Shown here piece by piece: positions 26,336 to 50,045 of a stretch of 50,466 nt of DNA (within the stretch, counting starts at the first letter, position 1; each line of letters starts with the position of its first letter). The notes below the pieces were generated by a model. It saw nothing but the letters and a program-made list of their open reading frames with translations, ran no database searches and was not told the origin of the DNA. A program made the position numbers and the translations under genes. The stretch is from contig JAITHJ010000016.1 of NCBI GenBank assembly GCA_031280035.1, positions 1 through 50,466 of the forward strand. The letters are read 5' to 3'. Source of the stretch: Spirochaetaceae bacterium (GTDB lineage Bacteria; Spirochaetota; Spirochaetia; Treponematales; Breznakiellaceae).

Positions 26336-26464
26336 CCCAGAGATTTGGAAAAATCTCCCGCATCTCGTGAAAAAATCTCCCGCATCTCCTTCTCACGAGA
26401 TGCGCATCTCGTGAGAAGATCTCCCAATGATTTTGCAAAACCGCCCAGTGATTTTGCCGCGCCG
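26336..26464. repeat. 21-22 bp tandem repeats with an embedded 30-bp perfect palindrome
   Basis: Units beginning CCC start at 26336, 26357, 26379, 26423 and 26444 (lengths 21, 22, 44, 21, 21). Two carry CCCGCATCTC and two carry CCCARTGATTTTGC. Inside the double-length unit, 26389-26418 is a perfect palindrome whose half is CTTCTCACGAGATGC; the same CATCTCGTGA word recurs at 26361-26370. The palindrome could fold into a strong cruciform or hairpin. There is no T tract, so it is not a usual terminator. Confidence 0.75.
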
Positions 26465-26491
26465 TGCGGCGAGCCGAAGACCGCCTACACA

Positions 26492-48211: not shown

Positions 48212-48922
48212 TTACGCGATAAGCCGCGACACAATCGGGCAATACGGCCCATCCTGATTCCGCGGTGTCTGCCAGCACGCCGAAGTAAAAAACTCCATGC
48301 CTATATCCGCAAGGTTGAACGGCAGCGTGTTGCTCCGCCGTCCCGATGAAAAATGCTGGGGCAGGTCTTCCGCCCGCACCGGCTGCCGGGTCAAGAGCCG
48401 CCCGTCTGCCGCCGCTTCTTCCAGCGTTGCCCACCGCCCTACGGGTTTGAGACCCCACTTGCAGAAAAAGTGGTTCGCGCTCCGTATATCCGAAGGCTCC
48501 GCGTCTCGAAACAGCTTTACCAGTATCCCGTGTCCGTCCGTGTTGTGCAGCGAAAGCGCCGGAACCACATCGCAGGGCGCAATGGGAGTCGGCGTGCCGT
48601 CGTGAACCGGCAAAAGAAGCGACACCAGTTCATCATTCGTGCGCGGCGGAGCGTTAAAAAAATTTGATTTAAGGAATTGCATGGTCAGCGCCAGATTGTG
48701 GAACAGAAAGCGGCACTGCTCGGTGATCACTTTGGTACGCCCGCCGGACCTAACCTCCGCAAGTATCGCAGCCGCCGCCGTTTTCTGGGTCTTGAACTCC
48801 GTAATCTTGTCCACAGGCACGCCCCACGCCGCGCCCTTGGCGTCAAGCTGGGTCTCCCAGTCGTCAGCCATGTGAATAATGTCATCCCGCCGTGAGGGAA
48901 ACCATCCCGTATAATGCGCCAT
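48212..48922 (-). CDS. Hypothetical protein of the accessory tail
   Basis: A 236-residue protein. MAHYTGWFPSRRDDIIHMADDW begins a helical region (to ~95); PVHDGTPTPIAPCDVVPALS marks a Pro-rich hinge. A beta-type C-terminal domain (~125-236) has HNTDGHGILVKLFRD, FFCKWGLKPVG and LPFNLADIGMEFFTSACWQT. There is no signal peptide. The helical-plus-Ig-like layout resembles large families of unknown proteins in gut treponemes and Bacteroidetes (from memory, not verified). AAGGAGG precedes the ATG at 48922. GC content is higher than in the neighbouring rpsP operon, which suggests different ancestry. Confidence 0.65.
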   Translation of the reverse strand: MAHYTGWFPSRRDDIIHMADDWETQLDAKGAAWGVPVDKITEFKTQKTAAAAILAEVRSGGRTKVITEQCRFLFHNLALTMQFLKSNFFNAPPRTNDELVSLLLPVHDGTPTPIAPCDVVPALSLHNTDGHGILVKLFRDAEPSDIRSANHFFCKWGLKPVGRWATLEEAAADGRLLTRQPVRAEDLPQHFSSGRRSNTLPFNLADIGMEFFTSACWQTPRNQDGPYCPIVSRLIA

Positions 48923-49035
48923 TATGTATCCTCCTTCGTATCCGCCCAAAGCCGCGCGTCCGTAAAGCGGAGGCGGGTCTTTTTTGGCACGATATGCTTG
49001 TAGTTGGGTTATATCCAGTTATATTTGAGTCAAAC

Positions 49036-49414
49036 ACGGCTGTAGCTGTGGTATAAGCGCTTACTTCCGCAATCAACGTAAGTATCGCCGGTTCACGGAC
49101 AGTTACCTTTGGTATATCAGTAGCTACTTCTACTTCAAAAGTAGCTACCTTTGGTATACCGGTAGTTACTTCTGTTTCAAAAGTAGTTACCTTTAGTGTA
49201 TCGGTAGTTACTTCTGATTCAAAAGTAGTTACCTTTGATATATCGGTAGTTACTTCTGCTTCAAAAGTAGTTACCTTTAGTGTATCGGTAGTTACTTCTG
49301 AGTTAAAAGCAACTGAATTTGGAGTGGAAACAGCCGCCTCTATGCCAAAAGCAGCTGTCGTTGGACGGTACGTAAGCGCGTTTTGGGCAGCGTTATGCCT
49401 ACAAAAAGCGCTCA
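49036..49414. repeat. 21-bp tandem array (about 18 units)
   Basis: Units of exactly 21 bp, best conserved from 49099 to 49308, begin with GTAGTTAC or GTAGCTAC and alternate between two endings (CTTTagTgTATCG and TTCTgaTTCAAAA), so a 42-bp double unit is also visible. Flanking units are progressively degenerate on both sides. Both strands are open: the minus strand would read heptapeptides such as EVTTDTL/KVTTFEA within a 198-codon frame (48882-49478) that lacks a ribosome binding site, and the plus strand would read KVVTFSVSVVTS. Coding status is doubtful. Confidence 0.85.
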
Positions 49415-49520
49415 ACCGGGCGTTTTGAGCGGAGATAGGTGAATAGTACGCGCCGGCGGTTTTTGTTCCGTATTTCATGGTACGCTCACGGTATCATGTT
49501 TTATATTACGTGCCAAGCCC

Positions 49521-50045
49521 TTAAAACGCTCTGGGTTTGACGAACGGCTCCGTTACCGTTATGTTCTCGCCGGATAGCTCGATAACGTAGAATCCCTGTT
49601 TCAGCGCGAATGTCCTCGTATCCTCGTTTATCACCGCCGCGGCCACCGCCGCGTAAAACTTCCTCTTATCTCCGTGTAACGCGGCGTATTTACGCAGTTT
49701 CTCCATGCGCGTAATGTGATCTTTTACGTCTTCCACGCTGAGGTTCACCTTCACTTCTACAGCCATGGCGCAGTCCCCGTTCTCCAGCAGCGCGTCAATC
49801 TCCATGATAATATCATTCACGAAGTCCTTGATCTTGTTGTTCCGGCTCATCTTGCTGAAGTCATACCCGAACTTGGCGACAAGATCGGGAACCATCAGGC
49901 TCTCCATAATGTCGCCGAGCCTGTTGCCCAGTCTGCGGTCTATCAAGGCCTGCGGTCTTTCGATGGCAAGCCACATGTCCTCAAAAGTAGTTTTCTTAGC
50001 GGGTTTAGCCTGAGTTTTTTTTGTCGTTACGGTTGTTTTAGGCAT
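49521..50045 (-). CDS. PD-(D/E)XK nuclease-like protein
   Basis: A 174-residue protein. The Lys/Thr-rich basic N-terminus (residues 1-20) is followed by a helical region with RPQALIDRRLGNRLGDIMES. The core matches the PD-(D/E)XK fold: IIMEIDALLENGDCAMAVEVK supplies the Asp and the ExK pair at the expected spacing, followed by a helix VEDVKDHITRMEKLRKYAA and strands KFYAAVAAAVI and FYVIELSG. Family members of this type (DUF3782-like) are common in treponemes and cyanobacteria and their targets are unknown. A CAGGAGA ribosome binding site lies 10 nt before the ATG. Nuclease activity is inferred. Confidence 0.7.
   Translation of the reverse strand: MPKTTVTTKKTQAKPAKKTTFEDMWLAIERPQALIDRRLGNRLGDIMESLMVPDLVAKFGYDFSKMSRNNKIKDFVNDIIMEIDALLENGDCAMAVEVKVNLSVEDVKDHITRMEKLRKYAALHGDKRKFYAAVAAAVINEDTRTFALKQGFYVIELSGENITVTEPFVKPRAF

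What the first reader, a model, noticed from the sequence alone, without database searches (positions are those of the whole stretch)
49036..49414. Second 21-bp array, alternating A/B units, at the accessory tail
About 18 units of 21 bp with core GTAGTTAC/GTAGCTAC; the central ten are nearly identical and the flanks decay symmetrically, as expected for ongoing expansion in the middle. The 42-bp double unit has two alternating halves. Either strand could encode heptapeptide repeats. Copy number is likely to vary between strains.
Basis: seen in the sequence. Interest (0 to 1): 0.5.

Follow-up and report, generated by a model that had tools for sequence, protein, structure and literature searches.

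The report
Repeat-bearing leader gene beside FN3-like gene
The 21-base repeats look like the stretchable middle of a small gene that sits directly in front of an undescribed gene family in Treponema-type spirochaetes; related copies mostly carry the same kind of repeats in different letters, a third of them with slippery tracts, which suggests a switchable two-gene unit.

Summary
The array is real: nine clear 21-bp units alternating A/B (49107-49295, minus strand), with degenerate heptads on both sides. It lies inside a minus-strand ORF (ORF1, 49478-48882) that overlaps the SD-preceded start of a 236-aa gene ("P2", 48922-48212; predicted three-helix bundle plus FN3-like domain; no database family found). 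P2 occurs in 89 of 195 family genomes, often in several copies. Directly upstream of P2 copies the dominant period is a multiple of 21 in 58 of 78, against 1 of 81 downstream. Units differ between loci; many share one plan: imperfect 14-bp palindrome plus 7-bp spacer, the dyad between codon positions 1 and 2 of the open frame (20 of 24 testable). In 27 related loci a poly-C/G, 7-bp or 8-bp tract lies upstream, usually before the array; 21 of 27 then keep a sense frame open towards P2 (antisense 6). That is a contingency-locus signature, though the window's copy lacks the tract. Codons show no synonymous bias, so the frame looks kept more than the peptide. Best reading: translated, hypervariable leader cistron of a dispersed two-gene unit, phase-variable in many copies. 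Switching, coupling and P2's function are inferred, not shown.

The parts
49107..49295 (-). Nine clear 21-bp units, alternating A/B (42-bp double unit); heptads VTTDTLK / VTTFEAE
49296..49400 (-). Degenerate heptad units on the 5' side of the array (down to background level)
49002..49106 (-). Degenerate heptad units on the 3' side of the array
48882..49478 (-). ORF1 (P0001, 198 aa): the open frame that reads the whole array; overlaps the start of P2 by 41 bp
49511..49516 (-). Candidate -35 (TTGGCA) of a weak sigma70-like promoter, 17 bp from the -10
   Evidence: score 8.5, weak; sequence
49488..49493 (-). Candidate -10 (TACCGT), 9 nt before the ATG of ORF1; a leaderless start is possible
48930..48935 (-). 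Shine-Dalgarno AGGAGG of P2, 7 nt before its ATG
48212..48922 (-). P2 gene (236 aa): three-helix bundle + FN3-like domain, multicopy family without a database name found

Best explanation
The array is the repetitive, fast-evolving coding part of ORF1, the first cistron of a two-gene unit ORF1-P2 that is dispersed in several copies through genomes of one Treponema-type family. Shown: the array-P2 linkage, the sense bias of the open frame, its register with the palindromes, and tracts of 1, 7 or 8 bp units upstream of many P2 copies. Inferred: ORF1 is translated from a start close to its promoter; in copies with a tract, slippage puts the array in or out of frame; ribosomes that cross the array end close to the P2 start and so favour P2 expression, by coupling or by protection from polarity. 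The 21-bp units expand, contract and are homogenised. In the window's copy there is no tract and ORF1 is uninterrupted, so it would be constitutively 'on'. What P2 does is unknown; I think most likely that it is a variable interaction protein (FN3-like domain), one of a repertoire expressed in varying subsets.
For: Linkage: best period a multiple of 21 in the last 500 bp upstream of P2 in 58 of 78 copies versus 1 of 81 downstream. In the window's own genome (547 kb of 1.43 Mb examined) 5 of 5 P2 copies with an N-terminal end have a 21-family array just upstream (one array, L222, has only 2.3 copies; one copy, L236, is a broken gene). Open frame: a sense frame is open over -400..-30 in 44 of 86 copies, antisense 22 of 86, downstream control 12 of 85 sense and 9 of 85 antisense. 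Register: palindrome dyad between codon positions 1 and 2 in 20 of 24 arrays with one open sense frame and z>=1 (16 of 19 at z>=1.64, 6 of 8 at z>=3); about 0.34 expected in simulation. Tracts: 29 of 87 upstream regions versus 1 of 87 downstream; the 27 tracts have units of 1, 7 or 8 bp, and 21 of these 27 loci stay open in sense from the tract to 40 nt before P2, 6 of 27 in antisense. Promoter followed 4-9 nt later by a start codon: score >=10.5 in 13 of 87 upstream versus 2 of 87 downstream (>=9: 20 versus 10). ORF1 stops between -60 and +80 of the P2 start in 46 of 64 loci (no null run). When 35 arrays in the 1|2 register are aligned by dyad and frame, a loose common heptad pattern appears (no null run).
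Against: No synonymous bias in arrays or in the stretch between tract and array (pN/pS 0.92 over 6 non-independent pairs; substitutions 79/70/68 by codon position). Arrays with at least one open sense frame are only modestly above column shuffles (46 of 62 versus 39.5 +/- 3.2; 8 of 300 shuffles reach it). About half of the copies (42 of 86) have no open sense frame over 370 nt. At lower redundancy the strand bias shrinks: 11 versus 7 of 23 at <60% P2 identity, 7 versus 6 of 16 at <50%. The window's copy has no tract and only a weak promoter match. The window's ORF1 is predicted disordered (pLDDT 36, single sequence). 17 of 22 21-family arrays in the own-genome sample have no P2 start nearby (some lie inside long ORFs or have two copies). 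Some P2 copies or remnants have no array found by TRF (for example L187, L171, L177, L178). No expression data.
Confidence: 0.55

Rival explanations
1. The array is non-coding regulatory DNA: palindromic operator sites at two helical turns (21 bp), in phase on one face, binding a dimeric regulator upstream of P2. The open frame is incidental.
For: Palindromicity above column shuffles: mean z 1.86, 35 of 62 arrays z>1.64. G-T and A-C mismatches are equal (467 each), as expected of double-stranded DNA sites, not RNA. No synonymous bias.
Against: Core sequences differ between most loci, which one regulator would hardly tolerate; arrays are long (up to about 700 bp, L084); frame-dyad register, tracts with an open sense frame and sense over antisense are not explained.
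Confidence: 0.17
2. The array is a neutral minisatellite: slippage and gene conversion expand a 21-bp seed and hairpin-templated repair makes it palindromic; it hitchhikes with a dispersed P2 gene.
For: Flat codon positions; 17 of 22 21-family arrays in the own-genome sample are not next to a P2 start; decay at both edges.
Against: 58 of 78 versus 1 of 81 flank asymmetry; tracts are found upstream of P2 in 29 of 87 but near only 1 of 24 arrays without P2; period held at 21 across differing sequences.
Confidence: 0.18
3. RNA attenuator: untranslated array transcripts fold into hairpins that shut off P2; translation of ORF1 opens them.
For: Window array RNA folds at -38.0 against -17.5 +/- 4.9 kcal/mol for column shuffles; mean z over 62 arrays -1.54.
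Against: The antisense strand folds as well (mean z -1.44; sense stronger in 28 of 62); no excess of G-U over A-C pairs, so no sign of selection on RNA.
Confidence: 0.1

Closest known systems
Contingency (phase-variable) loci with simple sequence repeats, as reviewed in PMC11868660 (two passages seen); Haemophilus and Neisseria examples in PMC2651432 and PMC5084427 (search listing with abstract starts only)
   Same: Short perfect tracts with unit lengths not divisible by three in or before an ORF, followed by an open frame in one phase (general features partly recalled)
   Different: Here the tract lies in a separate upstream ORF with a 21-bp palindromic array, in front of an SD-preceded second gene; the window's copy has no tract; switching has not been seen
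TAACTGA 7-bp intergenic direct repeats of Beggiatoaceae (PMC4679880, search listing and abstract start only)
   Same: 7-bp direct repeats with a proposed regulatory role
   Different: Other sequence and organisms; no 21-bp palindromic coding array and no linked gene family in what I saw
Fibronectin type III fold
   Same: The C-terminal half of P2 matches FN3 domains by structure (Foldseek E down to 6.6e-05)
   Different: No FN3 model among the Pfam hits up to E 0.1; joined to an N-terminal three-helix bundle
Plasmid iterons (recalled, no call)
   Same: Direct repeats of about 20 bp just upstream of a gene, differing between relatives
   Different: P2's predicted fold is no replication initiator that I know of; no match in 72,556 plasmid records

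Membership tests
SSR-mediated phase-variable locus | Perfect tract with unit length not a multiple of 3 inside or before the ORF | tested here: met
   Met in relatives: 29 of 87 upstream regions versus 1 of 87 downstream; NOT met in the window's own copy
SSR-mediated phase-variable locus | One phase after the tract gives a long open frame | tested here: met
   In relatives, 21 of 27 sense versus 6 of 27 antisense
SSR-mediated phase-variable locus | Tract length varies within a population and switches expression | not testable with these tools
   One genome per species; no reads or RNA data
Ordinary repeat protein under purifying selection | Synonymous bias between units in the coding frame | tested here: not met
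   0.310/0.299/0.280 by codon position, 35 arrays
Coiled-coil heptad protein | Hydrophobic a/d positions and predicted helix | tested here: inconclusive
   Hydrophobic share 0.57 at h2 and 0.41 at h5, spaced 3/4, but N, S, P and G frequent at h5-h7; single-sequence model disordered
Fibronectin type III domain (C-terminal half of P2) | FN3 beta-sandwich fold | tested here: met
   AlphaFold2 pLDDT 93.4; best PDB matches are mostly FN3 or FN3-containing receptors, several with target-normalised TM 0.60-0.76. By predicted fold only, not by sequence
Known RNA family (riboswitch, leader RNA and the like) | Rfam match at gathering score | tested here: not met
   Only two tRNAs in the window
Phage or plasmid gene | P2 homologue in phage or plasmid records | tested here: not met
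   No tblastn match in 50,697 phage records or 72,556 plasmid records

The most novel reading that the evidence does not exclude
A leader ORF selected for being translatable rather than for its sequence: hypervariable, inversion-tolerant repeats (palindromes in codon register 1|2, so both strands encode alike heptads) through which ribosomes must pass to express a paralogous FN3-like gene, with slippery tracts as the switch. It would be a self-diversifying, genome-wide switchboard of up to about a dozen P2 genes per cell.
Probability: 0.25. Interest if true: 0.78.

Novelty: new variant of a known kind. Interest (0 to 1): 0.58.

Why it matters
If right, these spirochaetes carry a large, so far undescribed (as far as my searches reach) repertoire of phase-variable two-gene units, and the 21-bp arrays are a kept architecture with little kept sequence: a natural test of what selection on reading frame without selection on peptide looks like. 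It also warns that such loci break assemblies (in 6 loci the tract sits at a contig end).

Tried and rejected
Ordinary repeat protein: no synonymous bias. RNA-hairpin selection: no G-U excess and no strand difference in folding. Arrays exclusive to P2: rejected; 21-family arrays also occur elsewhere (G040 sample of 245 kb: 8 such arrays, 1 upstream of an intact P2; G000 sample), with mixed neighbours (22 arrays looked at), mostly without tracts (1 of 24). Named protein family for P2: only weak hits to single or few members (best Pfam E 0.026, NCBIfam PQLLE E 0.0021 in 2 of 50, PHROGs E 0.011), no PADLOC hit, no PDB sequence hit. Viral contigs: an exact window-array pattern gave 0; the alignment could not be used there. 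Papers: searches gave 0 papers; searches listed nothing that describes this unit in the titles and abstract starts shown (one search showed 12 of 39, 8 of 9). This is not proof that it is unpublished: the library lacks most subscription journals. Rows dropped: one search left out stretches shorter than 220 nt; one search used 62 of the 63 arrays (one 7-bp array left out; arrays under 3 units would also be); one search counts only arrays with exactly one open sense frame and z>=1 (24 of 62); one search uses only the 35 arrays that allow the 1|2 register; needs the tract at least 150 nt before P2, and 6 of the tracts lie at a contig end, where assembly may be wrong. Copies are related, so counts are not independent; L005 and L066 are the same contig and both count.

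Full report
What is there. The window ends in a 21-bp tandem array. TRF gives 49101-49300, period 42, 4.8 copies. Unit by unit there are nine clear units at 49107-49295 that alternate between two halves, then degenerate heptads on both sides. Chance is excluded. No other 21-bp array was found in the window. On the minus strand ORF 49478-48882 (198 aa, P0001) reads the whole array as VTTDTLK/VTTFEAE heptads. One plus-strand frame is also free of stops over the array and encodes similar heptads (P0001 finds it at E 5.4e-12, that match holding one TAA), because the units are imperfect palindromes.

The neighbour gene. ORF1 overlaps by 41 bp the start of the next minus-strand gene, P2 (48922-48212, 236 aa), which has its own AGGAGG 7 nt before the ATG. 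89 of 195 family genomes match P2, some with 14 places (the number scored per genome was capped); the window's own genome has 12 places at E <= 0.01, fragments included. In 394 genomes drawn from the class only 6 match, the own genome included, all of the same family. No library names it convincingly. AlphaFold2 predicts a three-helix bundle and an FN3-like domain (pLDDT 93.4; Foldseek). The two nearest named records are titled Spirochaetaceae bacterium and Treponema sp.; a termite-gut origin would be my guess, no call says it.

Arrays belong to P2 loci. I fetched 80 stretches around P2 copies and compared 500 bp on either side: the best period is a multiple of 21 in 58 of 78 upstream and 1 of 81 downstream. 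TRF finds any tandem repeat within 1500 bp in 75 of 86 upstream and 26 of 86 downstream. In 547 kb of the own genome all 5 P2 copies with an N-terminal end have a 21-family array just upstream (one of only 2.3 copies, one before a broken gene), while 17 of 22 21-family arrays lie elsewhere. In a 245-kb sample of another genome, 1 of 8 such arrays stands before an intact P2, and a second, fragmented P2 has none. The nearest relative of the window's P2 (69% identity) has a 42-bp array of different sequence; the next (66-67%) has an 8-bp tract. In the first, KVRAFGS-type heptads stand where the window has KVTTFES: one plan, other letters.

Plan of the units. Over 62 arrays palindromicity (two arms of 7) exceeds column shuffles with mean z 1.86; 35 of 62 are above 1.64, the other 27 are not. 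In the palindromic ones the unit is an imperfect 14-bp palindrome plus a 7-bp spacer. In the window itself the excess is modest (z 1.33, 2.3 for even axes). G-T and A-C mismatches are equal, so the symmetry looks like a property of DNA, not of RNA. Yet the dyad is tied to the reading frame: between codon positions 1 and 2 in 20 of 24 arrays that have one open sense frame and z>=1; simulated palindromic arrays give about 0.34. Related arrays are not independent.

ORF1. A sense frame is open across -400..-30 of P2 in 44 of 86 copies, antisense in 22 of 86, downstream control 12 of 85; at lower redundancy the difference is small (11 versus 7 of 23; 7 versus 6 of 16). Upstream of many P2 copies lies a perfect tract: 29 of 87 upstream versus 1 of 87 downstream. 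In the 27 usable tract loci (14 poly-C/G of 11-23, 11 with 7-bp and 2 with 8-bp units) 21 keep a sense frame open from the tract to 40 nt before P2, 6 antisense. The tract usually lies before the array, but not always (in L070, L098 and L136 it lies between array and P2). In ten of these loci a promoter-like pair is followed 6-9 nt later by an ATG and then by the tract; from that ATG the present tract length leads through to P2 in five (L066, L079, L119, L133, L142) and not in the other five (L080, L101, L122, L124, L146). Other tract loci gave only weak promoter matches or had the tract at a contig end. This is what contingency loci look like. ORF1's stop lies within -60..+80 of the P2 start in 46 of 64 loci, compatible with coupling, but I ran no null for that count.

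What speaks against a conventional protein. Units vary evenly over codon positions, and so does the stretch between tract and array (79/70/68; pN/pS 0.92; 6 pairs). The excess of open frames over shuffles is modest (46 of 62 versus 39.5 +/- 3.2). The window's ORF1 is predicted disordered. So either the peptide is hypervariable, or only the passage of ribosomes matters, or the frame is partly incidental.

Dispersal and turnover. Among loci whose genome I had noted and with at least 500 bp downstream, 16 same-genome P2 pairs have 80% identity or more; 13 of 16 share no 200-bp match downstream, and 8 of these 13 do share 86-315 bp upstream (three of the other five involve copies at a contig end, with 152 bp or less upstream). 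The unit of ORF1, array and P2 thus seems to be copied to new places. L107 and L117 (different genomes, 1336 bp of downstream DNA at 85%) have at least 14 and 7-9 units with diverged sequence. Some arrays are followed by P2 remnants (L010, L012, and weakly L021).

Conclusion. Linkage and architecture are well supported; translation is likely; phase switching holds for tract-bearing relatives by signature only, and not for the window's copy; coupling and P2's role are inference.

Noticed in passing
window 49521-50045 (-): Small gene ahead of ORF1 (174 aa, P0003), weakly like PADLOC HEC-02B (E 0.0084) and Pfam DUF6997 (E 0.099, below its cut-off).
   Followed up: no
L181-L200 (G040) and L201-L240 (G000): Other tandem arrays of 22-24 bp, several with internal palindromes as read by eye, e.g. 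L185 15906-16026, L198 12626-12727, L215 6035-6188, L227 11462-11638.
   Followed up: no
L020 787-2223 (G006:C3): A 62-copy 21-bp array open on both strands (563 and 521 codons), no P2 found beside it.
   Followed up: no
L010 1763-2909 (G040:C59): An array followed by an 88-aa P2 with an internal deletion and by three further pieces matching only the C-terminal end of P2.
   Followed up: partly
L028 around 1595-1805 (G126:C170): An array without P2 flanked by an inverted repeat on either side, as read by eye in the sequence.
   Followed up: no
L098 -136 and L136 -134 relative to P2: Here the poly-C tract (14 C) lies between array and P2, not before the array.
   Followed up: no
window 26391-26475; L207 3553-3727: Possibly one dispersed repeat with CCCAGT(G/C)ATTTT-like cores, in tandem at L207.
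   Followed up: no
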